This document shows positions 10,833 to 61,497 of a stretch of DNA of 64,000 nt, piece by piece. Positions within the stretch are counted from its first letter, which is position 1. The number at the start of each line of letters is the position of its first letter. The translations under genes were made by a program, and so were the position numbers. The notes under the pieces are model-generated. The model was given only the letters and a program-made list of their open reading frames with translations, was not told the DNA's origin and searched no databases. The DNA lies in contig NZ_JANKBZ010000003.1 in assembly GCF_024623785.1 (NCBI RefSeq), positions 186,001-250,000 of the forward strand, given 5' to 3'. The stretch is from Archangium lipolyticum (GTDB lineage: Bacteria; Myxococcota; Myxococcia; Myxococcales; Myxococcaceae).

Positions 10833-13610
10833 CTACGGGAGCGGGACGAGACCGGGCGCGCGACGGAGGATGGAGCGGCCGGTGCCCAGCACCTCGAAGC
10901 TGTTGCTGCCCCAACTCCAGACGGAGCCATCGGTCTTCACGGCCACGGAGAAGCCCAGACCGGTCCCCGCCCTGCGCACGCCCGTGAGGGCCACCTGCAC
11001 CGGCGAGAGACTCCTGGACTGCGTCAGGGTGCCCAGGCCCAGTGCGCCACTGGAGTTGCTTCCCCAGGCCCACAGCGTGCCGTCGCCACTTACGGCCAGG
11101 GTATGGTCCTCATCGAGGTCGGTCACCGAGGCCACCCCGGAGAGGCCCGGCACCTGGACGGGGGTGGCGCGACTGTTGGTGGTGCCATCGCCCAGATTGC
11201 CGTAGTTGTTCTGTCCGCAGGCCCAGAGGGTGTTGCTGCTGCCGGCCACGACGATCGAGTAGTCATGACCCGCGGCCACCGCGGTGGCGTTCGTGACGGC
11301 GGCCATGCGGACAGGACTCGGCTGGTTGCGGGCGGAGGTCGGACCGATGCCGAGCTGGTTCCGGTTGCTCCACCCCCAACCCCACACCGAGCCGTCGTTG
11401 CGCACGGCCAGACTGTGGGCGTAGCCCGCGGACACCGAGATGACACCGGTGAGGCCTGGCACCTGGACGGGCGCCGGACGATCGACGGTGGTGCCATCGC
11501 CCAACTGGGCATCGGCGTTCCACCCCCACGCCCACACGGTGCCATCCTGGCGCAGTGCCAGCGCATGGGCGCTGCCCGCGGACACGGCCGTCATACCGGT
11601 GAGGCCCGGCACCTGCGTGGGGAACGACGAGTTCCCGCCGCCCACCTTGTAACCCCAGCTCCACACGGTGCCATCCTGGCGCAGCGCCAGCGAGTGGTGG
11701 TTGCCCGCGGACACGGCCGTCACACCGGTGAGACCCAACACCTGCACCGGCGCCAGCCGATTGGACGTGGTGCCGTCGCCCAGCTGCCCGGAATAGTTGT
11801 CCCCCCAGCTCCACACCGTACCGTCGTCGCGCAGCGCCAGGGTATGCGTCCTGCCCACGGAAATGTCCTTGAAGCCGCTCGCGAGCACCTGCACCGGCCC
11901 GGGCTCGAAGTCCGAGCCGTCCGCCAGGAGGCCGTTGTAGTTCGCTCCCCAGACCCAGACCCGGCCGCTCGAATCCAGCACCAGGGAGCTACAATCGGCG
12001 GAGGAGACGTCCACCCCTCCGGTGAGACCCGGCACCTGCTCGGGCACCGTGTGGGATTTCGAGTCGCTGCTGTCGTCCCGGCAGGTGTTGTTACCCCAGA
12101 GCCACACGCTCCCGTCACCGCGCAGCGCCAGGGAGGACTGGCCACCGGCGGTCAGGACCGTCGCCCCCGTGAGCCCCTGCACCTGAACGGGGGTGAGCCG
12201 CTGGGTATTGGAGGCATCACCCAACTGGCCCGAGTAGTTGTACCCCCAGCTCCACACCGTGCCGTCGTTGCGCAGTGCCAGGGAATGGGCGTCTCCCGCC
12301 GCCAGGGCGGTGATGCCCGACAGGCCCACCACCTGAGCCGGCGTGGAGCGCTGGGTCGTCGTGCCGTCGCCCAGTTGGCCCTCGAAGTTCTCCCCCCAGC
12401 TCCACACCGTGCCATCGTCGCGCAGCGCCAGGGCGTAGCCGTAGCCAGCCGCCACGGCCACCACGCGGCTCAGCCCAGGCACCTGATCCGGCGTGGAGCG
12501 CTGGCCCGTGGTGCCATTGCCCAGCTGACCGGAGTAGCCCTCGCCCCAGCTCCACACCGTGCCGTCGTCGCGCAGCGCCAAAGCGAAGCCGTTGCCAGCC
12601 GTGACGGAAACCACGCCACTCAAGCCGGACACCTGCGCGGGGGTGCTCCGGTTCACCAGGGTGCCATCTCCCAACTGGCCGTTGGAGTTGTACCCCCAGC
12701 TCCACACGGTGCCATCCTGGCGCAGCGCCAGCGAATACGCACCACCCGCGGCCACGGAGGTGACACCGCTCAGCCCCGTCACCTTCACGGGGCTGCGAAC
12801 GCGCGGCTCGCTCGTGGCCGGGCCGAGCTGGCCATGGTGGTTGTAACCCCATCCCCACACGGTGCCGTCCGCGCGCACGTGCAGCGCATGACCGCCGCTG
12901 GCGTCGAGCTTCAGCAGACGCGGGGAAGGTGTGACCGGAGGAGGAGGCGGCGGCGGAGCCTGCCCGCCGACGTCGAAGGCCAGGTCATCCCGATCATCGA
13001 ACGACCCCTGGGTACAGGTGGCGGCGCTCCCGCCGTAACGGAAGGACGCGCGGACGGCCTGGGTCGCGCCACCGGAGGGCAGCGTATAGGTGGCGCTCAG
13101 TCGCTGGAGGCCGGCGCCAGTGGGCACCATCGTGGTGAGGAAGGTCCACGACGGCTGCGTGGCATCCGCCGTGTAGTAGATGTCCAGCGCATCCGAGCTG
13201 TAACCGGAGTAGGCCCAGACGACGACCTCCACCCGCACCTGCTTGCCGGCCGCCAGGGTGGAGCCGTCCACCGTCGCCACCCGCACCTGCTCCACGGATT
13301 CATCGGCGCGGTAGCTGCCCGCGGTGCCGTCGGCGCAGGTGCCGCCCAGGGTGTTCGGAGCATTCTGCTCCGGGCCTACTCCCGCCCGGCCCTGGAGCAG
13401 GGTGCCCGAATCACAGTCCGAGACCCCTCCCTGGCACCGGGGAACGCGCAGCGTGGCGTCAGGGCTGGCCATCGCGCTGAGTGCCATGAGCTGGCTGTCC
13501 GGCCGCGTGCCCTCCGGCGCGAGCGGCCCCTCCTGGGGGCCGCAGGCCACGGCCAACACGAGCCCGGCTCCCCCCACCCACTTCATCCACGTCGTCGTGC
13601 GCCGCGTCAT
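10833..13610 (-). CDS. RCC1-repeat lipoprotein
   Basis: The chosen ATG at 13610 has AGGGGG five bases upstream; a TTG at 13631 is the alternative. The 925-residue protein has a lipobox (LVLAVAC, Cys23), a roughly 200-residue N-terminal domain that looks like a secreted beta-sandwich (DALDIYYTADATQPSWTF), a PPPPPPP linker, and then a long series of about 50-residue RCC1 repeats with the signature DGTVWSWGxNxxGQLGDGT. The repeats should fold as one or two seven-bladed propellers on the cell surface. In eukaryotes RCC1 binds Ran and histones; in myxobacteria such proteins are common and uncharacterised. A smaller paralogue lies at 46854-49100. Confidence 0.92.
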   Translation of the reverse strand: MTRRTTTWMKWVGGAGLVLAVACGPQEGPLAPEGTRPDSQLMALSAMASPDATLRVPRCQGGVSDCDSGTLLQGRAGVGPEQNAPNTLGGTCADGTAGSYRADESVEQVRVATVDGSTLAAGKQVRVEVVVWAYSGYSSDALDIYYTADATQPSWTFLTTMVPTGAGLQRLSATYTLPSGGATQAVRASFRYGGSAATCTQGSFDDRDDLAFDVGGQAPPPPPPPVTPSPRLLKLDASGGHALHVRADGTVWGWGYNHHGQLGPATSEPRVRSPVKVTGLSGVTSVAAGGAYSLALRQDGTVWSWGYNSNGQLGDGTLVNRSTPAQVSGLSGVVSVTAGNGFALALRDDGTVWSWGEGYSGQLGNGTTGQRSTPDQVPGLSRVVAVAAGYGYALALRDDGTVWSWGENFEGQLGDGTTTQRSTPAQVVGLSGITALAAGDAHSLALRNDGTVWSWGYNYSGQLGDASNTQRLTPVQVQGLTGATVLTAGGQSSLALRGDGSVWLWGNNTCRDDSSDSKSHTVPEQVPGLTGGVDVSSADCSSLVLDSSGRVWVWGANYNGLLADGSDFEPGPVQVLASGFKDISVGRTHTLALRDDGTVWSWGDNYSGQLGDGTTSNRLAPVQVLGLTGVTAVSAGNHHSLALRQDGTVWSWGYKVGGGNSSFPTQVPGLTGMTAVSAGSAHALALRQDGTVWAWGWNADAQLGDGTTVDRPAPVQVPGLTGVISVSAGYAHSLAVRNDGSVWGWGWSNRNQLGIGPTSARNQPSPVRMAAVTNATAVAAGHDYSIVVAGSSNTLWACGQNNYGNLGDGTTNSRATPVQVPGLSGVASVTDLDEDHTLAVSGDGTLWAWGSNSSGALGLGTLTQSRSLSPVQVALTGVRRAGTGLGFSVAVKTDGSVWSWGSNSFEVLGTGRSILRRAPGLVPLP

Positions 13611-14163: not shown

Positions 14164-15630
14164 CTAGCGGCGCGCCCGTGCCTGCTTCACGTACGGCGAG
14201 ACATGATCTCCGTACCGCTCCTCGACCCACGGCTCCAGGTGATCCGTGCCGCGGATGACGCCACGGCACCGCGGACTGCCGCACTCGCACTGGAACTCCG
14301 CCATCCCCGGTCCATAGAGGGTGGCGTAGTCGATCGTGATGGGCTCCCCCTCCTGGATGAGCCGGCGCGCCACGCAGTCGAGCCCCTCGTGCCAGGCGTT
14401 CGGATGGCACGAGTGGTTGAGGAGCGACCACTCCAGAGGGGCCTCGCCCGCGACAGCGAAGACGCCGTCCGGGAGCGGATAGGCCCACCGGGGCAGCATC
14501 GCGCGCTGCCAATCGGCCCAGGTCTTCTCGAGGTGCTGATGGCTCGCCAGGACGTGGGCGCGCTCCTCGCCAGCCAGGATGCGCTCGCCGGGAGCCAGGT
14601 TCATCGCGGCCACCAGACCCTGGCCGCCGGGTTGGCCATACTCGATCCGGAACCGGGGGCGGCGTGCCGCCTGACGGCGCAGGGCGCACGCGATGATGTG
14701 CTCCAGGAAGCCGCGCTGCCCCGTGGGATCTTGCGAGAGGATGAGGTCCGCGCTGCCGTACTCGCCCGGTGGGTAGAAGACGCCGCAGGCCGAGTTCACA
14801 TCCAGCAGGAACAGCCGCCCGTCCGGCCCCATGCGAATATCGAGGCGCGCGTATCCCACCCCCTTCGACGCGGTGAAGACGCGCTGGGCCAGCTGCCTCA
14901 ACCGCGCCTCCAGGGCCGGATCCGTCACGGGCCGCATGCCCATCTGCTCATAGTCCGACCACTTGAGATCGAAGTGCTTGAAGGTCTCTCCCTCGGGGAA
15001 GCGGATCTCCATGGGGGTGTAGACCCGGGGGAGCCGCTCCAGGGTTCCGGGCTCCGCGACCAGCACGGTGAACTCGGGGCCCTCGACGAACTCTTCAATC
15101 AGCGCCCCCCCGAACTGCGACACCATGTGCTCGGCCCTGTCGAGCAGCGCCTCGCGTGTCTCGACACGGGAGCCCTTGGTCAGGCCGATGCTGCCGTAGC
15201 CGTTCGGGTGCTTGACGATCAACGGGAAGCGCAGCGCCCTGGCGGCGCGCTCGGCCTCGGCGTGCTGGGTGACGAACGCGTACCGGGGCGTATCCACTCC
15301 GATGCGGTGGCAGACGCCCTTGAGCCACTGGCGGGTCGGTTCGTAGAACTCGGGCGTGGGGCCCGTGTAGGCTACGCCGAGCCGCTCCAGCTCGATGACC
15401 ACCTCCAGCCCCGGCAGATCCTCGTCCCACGCCGCATCGCACATGTTGATGAAGACGTCGTAGCCGCGGAGGGCCAGCCGCCGGACCGTCTGCACCGCGG
15501 TGGCCTTGTGGATCGGGCTCCGGTCCCAGTCATGCTCCGGCATCAGCCGGGAAGGATCCTGAACCGGATCGAATCCCTTGAACGGAGAGGTGGACTGCTC
15601 GTAGGAGGGGAGCAGCACGCAGAGTTTCAT
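14164..15630 (-). CDS. ATP-grasp (D-Ala-D-Ala ligase-like) - SET domain fusion protein
   Basis: The product has 488 residues. Residues 1-320 form an ATP-grasp ligase of the D-Ala-D-Ala ligase type: Lys140 in FPLIVKHPNGYGSIG, the nucleotide-hinge segment IEEFVEGPEFTV (178-189), and the metal-binding end LFLLDVNSACG (273-283). Residues 325-460 form a SET domain: N405-HSCHPN (SAM and substrate channel), ITIDYATLYG (431-440), and a post-SET Cys cluster C448-x-C450-x4-C455. A SET domain implies SAM-dependent lysine methylation; the ligase implies ATP-dependent bond formation to an amine. I know no characterised protein with this fusion. It is divergent, across 38 bp, from a gene carrying the same SET/post-SET module, so both probably act in one process. 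No signal peptide; cytoplasmic. Confidence 0.88.
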   Translation of the reverse strand: MKLCVLLPSYEQSTSPFKGFDPVQDPSRLMPEHDWDRSPIHKATAVQTVRRLALRGYDVFINMCDAAWDEDLPGLEVVIELERLGVAYTGPTPEFYEPTRQWLKGVCHRIGVDTPRYAFVTQHAEAERAARALRFPLIVKHPNGYGSIGLTKGSRVETREALLDRAEHMVSQFGGALIEEFVEGPEFTVLVAEPGTLERLPRVYTPMEIRFPEGETFKHFDLKWSDYEQMGMRPVTDPALEARLRQLAQRVFTASKGVGYARLDIRMGPDGRLFLLDVNSACGVFYPPGEYGSADLILSQDPTGQRGFLEHIIACALRRQAARRPRFRIEYGQPGGQGLVAAMNLAPGERILAGEERAHVLASHQHLEKTWADWQRAMLPRWAYPLPDGVFAVAGEAPLEWSLLNHSCHPNAWHEGLDCVARRLIQEGEPITIDYATLYGPGMAEFQCECGSPRCRGVIRGTDHLEPWVEERYGDHVSPYVKQARARR

Positions 15631-15668
15631 GGAGCGAATGATACGGGCGCCTTCTCCGCGGGAGAACC

Positions 15669-16721
15669 ATGAGTCGGAAGAACTACCTGCCTCGCACCTG
15701 GGCCGATGAGCGCTTGAGCGTCAAGCCCTCGCCCATCGATGGGAACGGGCTCTTCGCCACCCGCGACATCCCCGAGGGCACCGTGATCATGATCTGGGGG
15801 GGTGAAGTGGTGGAGCGGCGGACCATCGACTACTCCCGGTACCGCGGCGAAACGGTGGTCGCCATCAGCGAGACGGAGTACCTCGCCATCCCCCGCTCGG
15901 ACACCAGCGAGGCCCTGGATGTCTACCTCAACCACTCGTGCGATCCGACGGCCTGGCTCATCGATGAAGTGACCGTGGTGGCCCGGCGCCACATCCACGC
16001 GGGCGAGGAGATCACCACGGAGTTCGCCACCTGGTTCGACTATGAGCCCGGGGTGTCCTACTGCGAGAACTGGGCCTGCCGGTGTGGCAGCCCTCGGTGC
16101 CGGAAGGTCTTGAGCGCGCAGGACTGGCGGCGAGCGGATCTCCAGGAGAAGTACGCGGGGCACTTCTCGCCCTTCCTGGAGAAGCGCATCCAGGCGGAGC
16201 GGCTGAAGGGTCCCTCCACCGAGCCCCTGCCGCACGGGTCCATGGTCGAAGAACTGGTCAGGACGCTGGAGCTCGTGCCCCACCCGGAGGGAGGCTTCTA
16301 CCGGGAGACGTGGCGCTCGGAGGTTCCGGTGGAGACGCCGCGCGGAAGGCGGGCGGTGGGGACGGCCATCTACTACCTGCTGCCGCGAGGCACGTTCGCG
16401 GCCTGGCACCAGGTGACTTCGGATGAGCTGTGGCACTTCTACGATGGACAGGCGCTGACGATGTACCTGCTCGATGAGCGCCAGGGCCGGCTGGAGACGG
16501 TGACGCTGGGGCGCGACGTCACGCGGGGCGAGCGGCCGCAGGTGCTCGTTCCGGCCGGGGTGTTGCAGGCCGCGGAGCCGCGAGGGGACTACACCCTGTG
16601 CGGCTGCACGGTGGGCCCGGGCTTCGACTTCGCGGACTGGGAGATGCCCCGGGGCGAGGAGCTGGCGGCCCGTCATCCCGGGCACGCGGAGCTGTTCCGC
16701 CGGCTGTCCCACCCGGGCTGA
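15669..16721 (+). CDS. SET domain - cupin_5 (DUF985) fusion protein
   Basis: The product has 350 residues; GGGAGAA lies just before the ATG. Residues 13-150 form a SET domain: SPIDGNGLFATRDIPEG, N88-HSCDPT, EEITTEFATWFDY, and a post-SET cluster C137-x-C139-x4-C144 (CRCGSPRCR) nearly identical to that of the divergent neighbour. Residues 192-345 form a cupin_5/DUF985 domain with LELVPHPEGGFYRETWRS and the metal-type motif H247-x5-E253-x2-H256 (HQVTSDELWH). DUF985 proteins are small RmlC-like cupins of unclear function, usually stand-alone. Fusion to a SET methyltransferase is unusual and supports joint action with the ATP-grasp/SET protein. Confidence 0.88.
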   Translation: MSRKNYLPRTWADERLSVKPSPIDGNGLFATRDIPEGTVIMIWGGEVVERRTIDYSRYRGETVVAISETEYLAIPRSDTSEALDVYLNHSCDPTAWLIDEVTVVARRHIHAGEEITTEFATWFDYEPGVSYCENWACRCGSPRCRKVLSAQDWRRADLQEKYAGHFSPFLEKRIQAERLKGPSTEPLPHGSMVEELVRTLELVPHPEGGFYRETWRSEVPVETPRGRRAVGTAIYYLLPRGTFAAWHQVTSDELWHFYDGQALTMYLLDERQGRLETVTLGRDVTRGERPQVLVPAGVLQAAEPRGDYTLCGCTVGPGFDFADWEMPRGEELAARHPGHAELFRRLSHPG

Positions 16722-61032: not shown

Positions 61033-61497
61033 GTGGCCACACGGAAGGCGCAAGCGAAGAAGCCCGCGGTCAAGAAGTCAGTGGTCAAGAGGCCCGCGGC
61101 GAAAACGAAGTCTTCGTCCCAGGGAACGAACGGCACGGACGAGGTGGACGCGTACATGAAGCGTCTGGAGCACCCGCTGAAAGCCGAGATCGAAGCCGTG
61201 CGGGCGATCATCCTCGGGGCGAACAAGAAGGTCGCCGAGCGCGTGAAGTGGAACGCGCCGAGCTTCTACTACAAGCAGGACATCGCGGCCTTCAATCCCC
61301 GCGCACAGGACTGTGTTCACGTCGTCTTCGTCTTCCCGAAGGGCACGATGCCGACTGATCGGTTCGGCTTCCTGGAAGGCGACTATGTGGACCGGCGCAT
61401 GGCGCGGTTCCGCGACATGGCGGATGTGCGGGCGAACAAGGCCGGGCTCGTGCGGCTCGTGAAACACTGGGTCCGCGCCATGGACGAGGTGCAATGA
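61033..61497 (+). CDS. DUF1801 domain protein with Lys/Ala-rich N-terminus
   Basis: The start is GTG at 61033, after AGGAGAG. The 154-residue protein begins with a histone-H1-like basic tail (KAQAKKPAVKKSVVKRPAAK) and continues with a DUF1801/YdhG-like domain (VDAYMKRLEHPLKAEIEAVR, VKWNAPSFYYKQDIAAFN). The tail could bind nucleic acid. Its stop overlaps the start of the SDR gene (ATGATG), implying coupled translation. Confidence 0.82.
   Translation: MATRKAQAKKPAVKKSVVKRPAAKTKSSSQGTNGTDEVDAYMKRLEHPLKAEIEAVRAIILGANKKVAERVKWNAPSFYYKQDIAAFNPRAQDCVHVVFVFPKGTMPTDRFGFLEGDYVDRRMARFRDMADVRANKAGLVRLVKHWVRAMDEVQ

What the first reader, a model, noticed from the sequence alone, without database searches (positions are those of the whole stretch)
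14164..16721. Divergent pair of SET-domain fusions: ATP-grasp/SET and SET/cupin_5
Both proteins carry an intact bacterial SET domain with NHSC and a near-identical post-SET Cys cluster (C-x-C-x4-C in CECGSPRCRG and CRCGSPRCRK). One is fused to a D-Ala-D-Ala ligase-like ATP-grasp domain and the other to a DUF985 cupin. They share a 38-bp divergent promoter region. Two SET enzymes with different metabolic partner domains in one locus suggest a modification pathway in which ligation and lysine (or other amine) methylation are linked, perhaps on a peptide or a peptidoglycan-type precursor. I know no described system of this form; that novelty is an inference from memory.
Basis: partly seen in the sequence, partly recalled or inferred. 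Interest (0 to 1): 0.78.

Follow-up and report, generated by a model that had tools for sequence, protein, structure and literature searches.

The report
Widespread ATP-grasp ligase fused to SET methyltransferase
Two neighbouring myxobacterial genes carry SET methyltransferase domains; one, joined to a peptide-bond-forming ligase, belongs to a widespread and apparently undescribed bacterial enzyme family that probably makes a small methylated metabolite, while the joining of the other to a cupin looks like a recent one-off accident.

Summary
In detail: gene A (14164-15630, -) is a Ddl-like ATP-grasp plus SET; gene B (15669-16721, +) is SET plus cupin_5/DUF985; 38 bp lie between their start codons. 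The two halves of the finding then part.

The ATP-grasp/SET fusion is real and widespread: 70 of 80 loci kept from a genome scan carry it, 68 of them in 12 named phyla. 41 of the 70 hold a further SET, as a C-terminal domain or a nearby gene. 21 of the 70 have an ABC-type transporter gene directly downstream. In the PDB the fusion SET is closest by sequence to BurB, which methylates free methionine. I read the family as amino-acid ligase/methyltransferases making a small, sometimes exported, molecule. The product is unknown.

The SET/cupin protein is probably not part of this. Its cupin is missing from its ancestral place beside nei and near leuS, and is now fused in frame to SET; the fusion was seen only in this genome among 193 of the phylum and 6 of the genus. 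B's SET also lies outside the usual partner-SET clade.

The peptidoglycan idea is not supported: A is far below the Ddl cut-off and two genes above it lie elsewhere.

The parts
14164..15630 (-). Gene A: ATP-grasp/SET fusion protein, 488 aa
   Evidence: orthologue in Hyalangium versicolor 73-74% identical over full length
14656..15630 (-). A residues 1-325: Ddl-fold ATP-grasp domain; K104, K140, R262, D264 the same in 42 of 42 aligned rows, N279 in 41 of 42
   Evidence: AlphaFold model of A, mean pLDDT 91; Z 30.7 to P. aeruginosa DdlB
14164..14655 (-). A residues 326-488 (with stop): SET plus post-SET; H406, C408, Y435, C448, C450, C455 the same in 42 of 42 rows, N405 in 39 of 42
   Evidence: best PDB sequence match BurB 3.6e-8; SET fold model
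15631..15668 (.). 38-bp divergent intergenic gap (42 bp in Hyalangium)
15669..16721 (+). Gene B: SET/cupin_5 composite protein, 350 aa
15669..16214 (+). B residues 1-182: SET plus post-SET, 'B-type', F119 at the usual Tyr position
   Evidence: 76% identical to the standalone divergent SET of Hyalangium; separate clade; F119
16215..16241 (+). Short linker at the fusion junction: DNA similarity to the Hyalangium SET ends at 16201, similarity to standalone cupin genes starts at 16233-16242
16242..16721 (+). B residues 192-350: complete cupin_5 (DUF985) gene with the ATG used by the standalone congener genes; missing from its ancestral place beside nei, near leuS

Best explanation
Gene A is a member of a widespread, apparently undescribed family of bifunctional enzymes. 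The likely reaction path: a SET domain moves methyl from SAM to a heteroatom of a free amino acid or a small peptide; the Ddl-fold ATP-grasp domain activates a carboxylate as an acyl phosphate and joins it to an amine; a second SET, where there is one, adds a further methylation. In part of the family the product is exported by an ABC-type transporter. Gene B supplies the second SET at this locus. Its cupin half is a passenger: a DUF985 gene lost from its old place and fused in frame to SET in this lineage. Shown: domain make-up, conserved ATP-site and SAM/zinc-site residues, wide conservation of the fusion, clustering with further SETs and transporters, absence of the cupin from its old place and its presence in B. 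Inferred: both activities, the substrate, the order of steps, export, that B and A act together, and that the cupin plays no part.
For: Fusion: 70 of the 80 loci kept (of 132 relatives) have ATP-grasp and SET in one ORF, 68 of them in 12 named phyla, 2 unassigned. ATP-site and SET-site residues conserved in the 42 aligned rows, A and 41 of the 70. A further SET in 41 of 70: 12 C-terminal, 31 separate, 2 of these both. Outside the fusion ORFs there are 41 SET hits of 25 bits or more, in 32 loci, within 3 kb (369 kb of flank) and 0 farther out (312 kb). Second SETs: 12 of the 13 separate and all 10 C-terminal ones put into the tree, with both third SETs, share one starred branch. Transporter directly downstream in 21 of 70: ABC_membrane_3 (PF13748) in 16, of which 13 were checked by Pfam and 3 only by BLAST cluster; full ABC exporter in 5 Chlorobium, 5 of 5 checked. 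Closest PDB sequence to A's SET is BurB (3.6e-8), and to a Chitinophagaceae second SET also BurB (1.4e-13); BurB S-methylates free methionine (PMC12542666, parts 1-2 of 4 read). ATP-grasp model: Ddl fold, Z 30.7. Cupin: searches show the ancestral site lacking 1235 bp that hold the cupin in G143; dS of the cupin 0.138 against 0.134 for its old neighbour nei, versus G143.
Against: 29 of 70 fusions have no second SET in the DNA held; 16 of these 29 have more than 3 kb on both sides. 49 of 70 have neither transporter type directly downstream by my gene calls (62 of 70 hold 1.2 kb or more there). At the window locus itself the neighbours are kinase and RCC1-repeat genes and two proteins without Pfam match, no transporter. 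B's SET is outside the partner-SET clade, is closest to MLL1 (BurB not listed at E 0.01), and has Phe for Tyr. By structure A's SET is tied: Foldseek ranks SETD2 first and BurB second; VIA Z is 12.3 for ASH1L and 11.7 for BurB, so fold does not tell the substrate. In myxobacteria the parts also live apart: 8 of 11 genomes with a close ATP-grasp show no SET nearby, and 3 genomes have a B-type SET without it. Of the 10 non-fusion ATP-grasp loci only 1 (A. lansinium) has a SET in the DNA held. No substrate was identified. One search kept the best 80 by similarity to the full-length query, which favours fusions.
Confidence: 0.5

Rival explanations
1. Protein modification: the ATP-grasp domain attaches an amino acid to a protein and the SET domains methylate protein lysines, as tubulin ligases and histone methyltransferases do.
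For: B's SET is closest to MLL1; most SET enzymes known (from memory) act on protein lysine; structure does not separate A's SET from histone enzymes; a eukaryotic protein, TTLL12, also joins a SET-like and an ATP-grasp-type ligase domain (PMC3520985, passages).
Against: The ATP-grasp is of the Ddl type, whose known members (from memory) join free amino acids; the fusion SET and a partner SET are closest by sequence to BurB; transporters adjoin in 21 of 70. TTLL12 has the opposite domain order and lacks critical residues.
Confidence: 0.2
2. Sulfonium chemistry: the SET domains make S-methyl-methionine, as BurB does, and the ATP-grasp ligates it into a peptide or conjugate.
For: BurB is the top PDB sequence match of A's SET and of a partner SET; BurB makes S-methyl-methionine.
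Against: Only 28-29% identity; BurB has Leu where A keeps Asn405; the methionine contacts in BurB are main-chain, so sequence does not predict them. No search for the downstream bur genes was made.
Confidence: 0.15
3. One reading: a peptidoglycan-type precursor is ligated and methylated by A and B together, SET/cupin included.
For: Ddl-like fold. In two Acidobacteriota loci (L111, L116) the gene before the fusion is a tetrahydrodipicolinate succinyltransferase-type protein.
Against: A scores 60.2 bits against a 245.65 cut-off; two genes above the cut-off lie elsewhere; the end of the ATP-grasp reads CGVFYPPG, unlike Ddl (the Ddl motif recalled); SET/cupin is seen only in this genome.
Confidence: 0.07
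4. The SET/cupin fusion is a new working enzyme in which DUF985 and SET act on one substrate.
For: Both halves are open and in frame; the cupin is under purifying selection against G143 (dN/dS 0.08), though most of that divergence may predate the fusion.
Against: One genome only; the cupin stands alone in the 5 other genomes of the genus and in Hyalangium SET stands alone.
Confidence: 0.08

Closest known systems
D-alanine--D-alanine ligase (Ddl; TIGR01205, PF07478)
   Same: ATP-grasp fold over residues 1-320, Z 30.7; ATP/Mg-site residues kept (the role of these residues in Ddl is recalled)
   Different: Far below the curated cut-off; the acceptor-side C-terminal motif differs (CGVFYPPG); fused to SET; two genes above the Ddl cut-off elsewhere in the genome
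BurB, SET-domain methionine S-methyltransferase (PDB 9l4t, 9l4v)
   Same: Top PDB sequence match of the fusion SET and of a partner SET; same conserved Tyr and zinc-site cysteines by alignment
   Different: BurB is a lone 172-aa enzyme; here SET is fused to a ligase and often paired with another SET; LHSC in BurB against NHSC; substrate unknown
Graspetide (RiPP) clusters with ATP-grasp ligases and ABC exporters (PMC8939145, passages only)
   Same: ATP-grasp ligase plus ABC-type transporter
   Different: No conserved small precursor ORF recognised near the fusions; Ddl-type ligase; SET in place of the O-methyltransferases listed there
TTLL12 (PMC3520985, passages only)
   Same: SET-like and ATP-grasp-type ligase domains in one protein
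   Different: Eukaryotic, SET-like domain at the N-terminus, lacks critical residues and in vitro activity
DUF985/Cupin_5 proteins (e.g. PDB 1yud, 1znp)
   Same: B residues 192-350 are a full member
   Different: Those seen here in congeners stand alone; in B it is fused to SET

Membership tests
SET-domain methyltransferase (PF00856) | Pfam score above gathering cut-off | tested here: met
   A 29.4 and B 49.1 bits against 22.4
SET-domain methyltransferase (PF00856) | NHxC, catalytic-position Tyr and post-SET zinc cysteines, in A | tested here: met
   H406, C408, Y435, C448, C450, C455 in 42 of 42 rows
SET-domain methyltransferase (PF00856) | The same residues in B | tested here: inconclusive
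   NHSC and cysteines kept, but Tyr is Phe119; BurB Y124F keeps over 60% activity
SET-domain methyltransferase (PF00856) | SAM-dependent methyl transfer | not testable with these tools
   needs assay
D-alanine--D-alanine ligase | ATP-grasp fold with ATP/Mg residues | tested here: met
D-alanine--D-alanine ligase | Score above the curated TIGR01205 cut-off | tested here: not met
   60.2 bits against 245.65; two other genes of the genome pass
D-alanine--D-alanine ligase | Ddl-type acceptor-site motif near the C-terminus (motif recalled, not from a call) | tested here: not met
   N279..C282-G-V-F-Y-P-P-G in A
BurB-like methionine S-methyltransferase | Closest solved relative by sequence | tested here: met
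   A's SET 3.6e-8; Chitinophagaceae partner SET 1.4e-13; not so for B
BurB-like methionine S-methyltransferase | Makes S-methyl-methionine | not testable with these tools
   needs assay
BurB-like methionine S-methyltransferase | DMSP-pathway genes (BurI, BurD, BurE type) nearby | not tested
   no search made for them
Graspetide RiPP system | Conserved precursor peptide gene next to the ligase | tested here: inconclusive
   808 short ORFs near 70 fusions clustered; 5 groups in 3 loci each, none larger, none precursor-like to my eye; a divergent or distant precursor is not excluded
Anti-phage defence systems (PADLOC) | Match to a PADLOC model | tested here: not met
   No match at 0.01 for A, B, partner SET, second ATP-grasp or ABC_membrane_3 protein; the Chlorobium ABC exporter matched 12 models with its ATPase, best mad3 1.2e-32, as ABC ATPases would
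Cupin_5 (DUF985) | Pfam score above cut-off | tested here: met
   167.2 against 25 bits

The most novel reading that the evidence does not exclude
A cross-phylum class of bacterial pathways in which SET domains, best known for writing histone marks, act on free amino acids or small peptides together with a Ddl-fold ATP-grasp ligase in one polypeptide, often in pairs of two distinct SET clades, and whose product is exported in part of the family. It would be an unrecognised family of methylated peptide-like metabolites.
Probability: 0.45. Interest if true: 0.75.

Novelty: new variant of a known kind. Interest (0 to 1): 0.6.

Why it matters
If true, SET methyltransferases have a broad bacterial role in small-molecule assembly, of which BurB is the one case with a structure that my searches turned up. 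The operons of Chitinophagaceae (four genes) and Chlorobium (four genes) are compact and end in or include a transporter, so the product could be found by expression and metabolomics. The cupin half is a clear example of how a gene fusion that looks like a pathway link can be a chance relocation, a caution for function calls from domain fusions.

Tried and rejected
SET/cupin as half of a joint system: rejected, since only 1 of 193 phylum genomes and 1 of 6 genus genomes has it, and the standalone cupin is missing from its old place. In one search a few cupin matches run some 20-40 residues ahead of the cupin start through a stop codon; none reaches the SET core.

Cupin gained by transfer from a G143-like strain: DNA identity of 96% first suggested it, but dS of the cupin (0.138) equals that of its old neighbour nei (0.134), though not of leuS (0.074), so relocation within the genome fits better. 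An assembly error at the junction was not testable (no reads).

RiPP precursor near the fusions: none recognised (one of the 5 groups is a 71-90 aa membrane-like ORF about 2 kb downstream in L131, L136, L140, taken as unrelated). Defence system: no PADLOC match except to the ATPase of the Chlorobium exporter. Plasmid or phage carriage: 13 plasmid and 2 phage records match part of A, none over 80% of it. Flank synteny of the window locus in congeners: swamped by paralogues, no conclusion. Neighbours c7, c10, c21 in some Bacteroidota: RecQ, GFO/IDH/MocA oxidoreductase and 3-keto-disaccharide hydrolase by one member each, set aside as not specific. DapD-type gene upstream in 2 of 70 loci: too few. 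Foldseek of whole A listed only Ddl-type ligases in its top 50, so the SET was folded alone. My gene caller missed or mis-stranded the fusion in several loci (e.g. L097, L101, L118), so fusion and SET counts use stop-to-stop ORFs with HMMs; the transporter counts rest on the gene caller and may be low. The SET profile was built from SETs found in these same loci. The 15 control loci (0 SET hits in 295 kb) are all myxobacterial, 9 around cupins and 6 around ATP-grasps already seen to lack SET within 1.5 kb, so they are a weak control; the far flanks of the fusion loci are the better one. The tree used 60 rows (26 fusion SETs with the window's; 13 separate second SETs, from 13 of 31 loci; 10 of 12 C-terminal ones; 6 B-type; 2 third; 3 others of the genome), quick method, with long branches for the genome's three other SETs and L126.

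Papers: no paper on an ATP-grasp/SET fusion of bacteria (0 papers; 2; 15 of 40 listed; 0; 0); open-licence PMC only. A 2009 amidoligase survey and a 2011 survey of chromatin methylation from Aravind's group are recalled and were not seen.
Full report
OBSERVATION. Pfam finds Dala_Dala_lig_C and SET in A, SET and Cupin_5 in B, all above gathering cut-offs. The NHSC and CxCx4C motifs are there. dN/dS against the Hyalangium orthologues is 0.28 for A and 0.28 for the B SET, so both are maintained. The genome has 5 SET matches in 12.6 Mb, so two side by side is unlikely to be chance.

THE CUPIN HALF. The window's genome is of a myxobacterium; the same-genus handle G177 matches a record titled Archangium lansinium and G185 one titled Hyalangium versicolor (equal contig lengths). 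In 193 genomes of the phylum no match of B spans SET and cupin except in the window's own genome (E 1e-15); the same in the 6 genomes of the genus (E 1e-10). The 5 other genomes of the genus have a standalone cupin of 159 aa that starts at the Met corresponding to B residue 192. In G143 it lies beside a formamidopyrimidine-DNA-glycosylase-type gene (nei) and near a leucyl-tRNA synthetase gene (leuS). The window's genome has that region on contig C34, 90-94% identical, but without a 1235-bp piece that holds the cupin and one more gene without Pfam match, and it has no other cupin match to B at E 1e-10. DNA similarity of B to the Hyalangium SET ends at 16201 and to standalone cupins starts at 16233-16242. 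Synonymous divergence from G143 is 0.138 for the cupin and 0.134 for nei (leuS 0.074). So the cupin gene left its place and was joined in frame to SET in this lineage. I found no sign that it belongs to the SET/ligase module. An assembly error is not excluded.

THE ATP-GRASP HALF IN MYXOBACTERIA. Of 193 phylum genomes 26 match A at E 1e-20; 15 of these only distantly (29-37% identity). The full fusion is in 2, the window's and G185; 9 more have a close ATP-grasp (47-54%) not fused to SET. Of these 11 genomes, 3 have a SET next to it: divergent in the window and Hyalangium, separate and codirectional 7 bp apart in G177. Of the other 8, six were read over 20 kb and two with 1.5 kb on each side; none shows a SET. 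Three more genomes (G109, G122, G136) have a B-type SET and no close ATP-grasp. So in myxobacteria the link is patchy.

OUTSIDE THEM. A scan of 84,980 species genomes with an ATP-grasp alignment gave 132 relatives, of which the best 80 were kept. 70 of the 80 are fusions of the same order; of the other 10 only the A. lansinium locus has a SET in the DNA held. By record titles 68 of the 70 fall in 12 named phyla (Bacteroidota 21, Acidobacteriota 14, Pseudomonadota 7, Myxococcota 6, Chlorobiota 6, Gemmatimonadota 4, Chloroflexota, Planctomycetota, Actinomycetota and Rhodothermota 2 each, Methylomirabilota 1, Fibrobacterota 1), 2 unassigned. Many are metagenome bins, some titles look mislabelled (two read Klebsiella pneumoniae), and a few loci look like near-copies (L119/L120, L131/L140). 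The ranking favours full-length matches, so 70 of 80 is not an unbiased share.

A SECOND SET IS COMMON. 41 of 70 fusions hold a further SET: in 12 it follows in the same ORF, in 31 it is a separate ORF, 2 have both; the separate ones are on the same strand in 30 of 31, the exception being Hyalangium. In L158 the separate one starts 102 bp after the first SET in another frame and may be a C-terminal domain cut off by a frameshift. 29 of 70 have none in the DNA held, 16 of them with more than 3 kb on both sides. Outside the fusion ORFs there are 41 SET hits in 32 loci within 3 kb and none in 312 kb farther out. In a tree of 60 SET domains the fusion SETs lie on one side of a branch (SH-aLRT 84, not starred), 24 of the 25 second and third SETs share another (95, starred), and the 6 B-type SETs a third (98, starred). 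So the separate and the C-terminal second SETs are mostly one lineage, and the window's B is not of it: at this locus the partner role, if it is one, is filled by another SET.

NEIGHBOURS. In Bacteroidota a usual order is SET, a second ATP-grasp, the fusion, then a gene of PF13748 (ABC_membrane_3). That last gene is directly downstream in 16 loci: 15 plus L130 (Gemmatimonadota), where it overlaps; 13 of the 16 were checked by Pfam. In 5 Chlorobium loci a full ABC exporter follows (5 of 5 by Pfam), then a third SET. That is 21 of 70. A second ATP-grasp hit was counted in 27 of 70; one (L141) is probably a piece of the same gene. Single loci have an MFS protein (L126), a PLP enzyme (L104), a TPP enzyme (L117), a LicD protein (L141), a class I methyltransferase (L128) or a DUF3326 protein (L122) next to the fusion. 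The window locus has kinases and an RCC1-repeat protein around it and no transporter.

STRUCTURE AND CLOSEST KIN. A's model (mean pLDDT 91) has a Ddl-fold ATP-grasp: Z 30.7, 2.3 A over 290 residues, 23% identity to P. aeruginosa DdlB. K104, K140, R262 and D264 are the same in 42 of 42 rows, N279 in 41; that these match the ATP/Mg and phosphate residues of Ddl follows from the alignment and from recall of Ddl. The acceptor end reads CGVFYPPG where Ddl differs, and A scores 60.2 bits against a 245.65 cut-off for TIGR01205. The genome has two genes above that cut-off. A is thus unlikely to be the cell-wall ligase. The SET of A, folded alone (mean pLDDT 90), has SETD2 first and BurB second in Foldseek (5.0e-8 and 6.0e-8); VIA gives ASH1L Z 12.3 (134 residues, 2.7 A) and BurB Z 11.7 (123 residues, 2.6 A), a tie, with the higher identity to BurB (28% against 21%). 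By sequence BurB is the best PDB match of A's SET (3.6e-8) and of a Chitinophagaceae partner SET (1.4e-13). BurB S-methylates free methionine and was not active on MTHB or MMPA; its Y124F mutant keeps over 60% activity (PMC12542666, parts 1 and 2 of 4 read). That last point means B's Phe119 need not mean a dead enzyme. B's SET is closest to MLL1 (2.1e-9).

MECHANISM. Shown: the domains, the conserved active-site residues, the clustering. Inferred: SET methylates a free amino acid or peptide, ATP-grasp makes an amide through an acyl phosphate, a transporter exports the product. I put 0.5 on this. The main rival is protein modification (0.2). Nothing here tells the substrate.

NOVELTY. Paper searches on ATP-grasp with SET (one search listed 15 of 40) showed only TTLL12, a eukaryotic protein of opposite order that lacks critical residues (PMC3520985, passages), and one unrelated hit with both terms. 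A review of bacterial SET proteins (PMC3980110, passages) and a study of graspetides (PMC8939145, passages) gave no such fusion in the terms I searched. None of the 25 NCBIfam matches shown for A (of 36) passes its cut-off. The parts are known kinds; the pairing is, as far as these searches go, undescribed.

Noticed in passing
G000 contig C34 about 61083-61088 (locus L088): Ancestral cupin site: 1235 bp, holding the cupin and one gene without Pfam match in the congener G143, are missing, with well-kept flanks.
   Followed up: yes
L102, L105, L107, L109, L110: Chlorobium loci carry three SETs: SET, ATP-grasp/SET, ABC exporter, then a short third SET; two third SETs in the tree group together.
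   Followed up: partly
L130-L157: Many Bacteroidota/Gemmatimonadota loci carry a second Ddl-like ATP-grasp before the fusion and an ABC_membrane_3 protein without ATPase after it, which could allow a tripeptide-like product.
   Followed up: partly
L119, L120 (4386-8304): Lake Acidobacteria with an ATP-grasp gene that has only a partial SET match, directly before an ATP-grasp/SET/SET gene, and further SET pieces on both sides, an apparent local expansion.
   Followed up: partly
G000 C1:634886-636721 and C1:380598-383051; loci L017-L031: Proteins with two Ddl-like ATP-grasp matches in one long open frame in this and related myxobacteria, apart from the fusion; one such pair of matches lies near a fusion in L158.
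   Followed up: no
window 10833-13610: Large RCC1-repeat protein, with many similar stretches elsewhere in the genus.
   Followed up: no
L111, L116: The gene upstream of the fusion is a tetrahydrodipicolinate succinyltransferase-type protein in two Terriglobia bins.
   Followed up: partly
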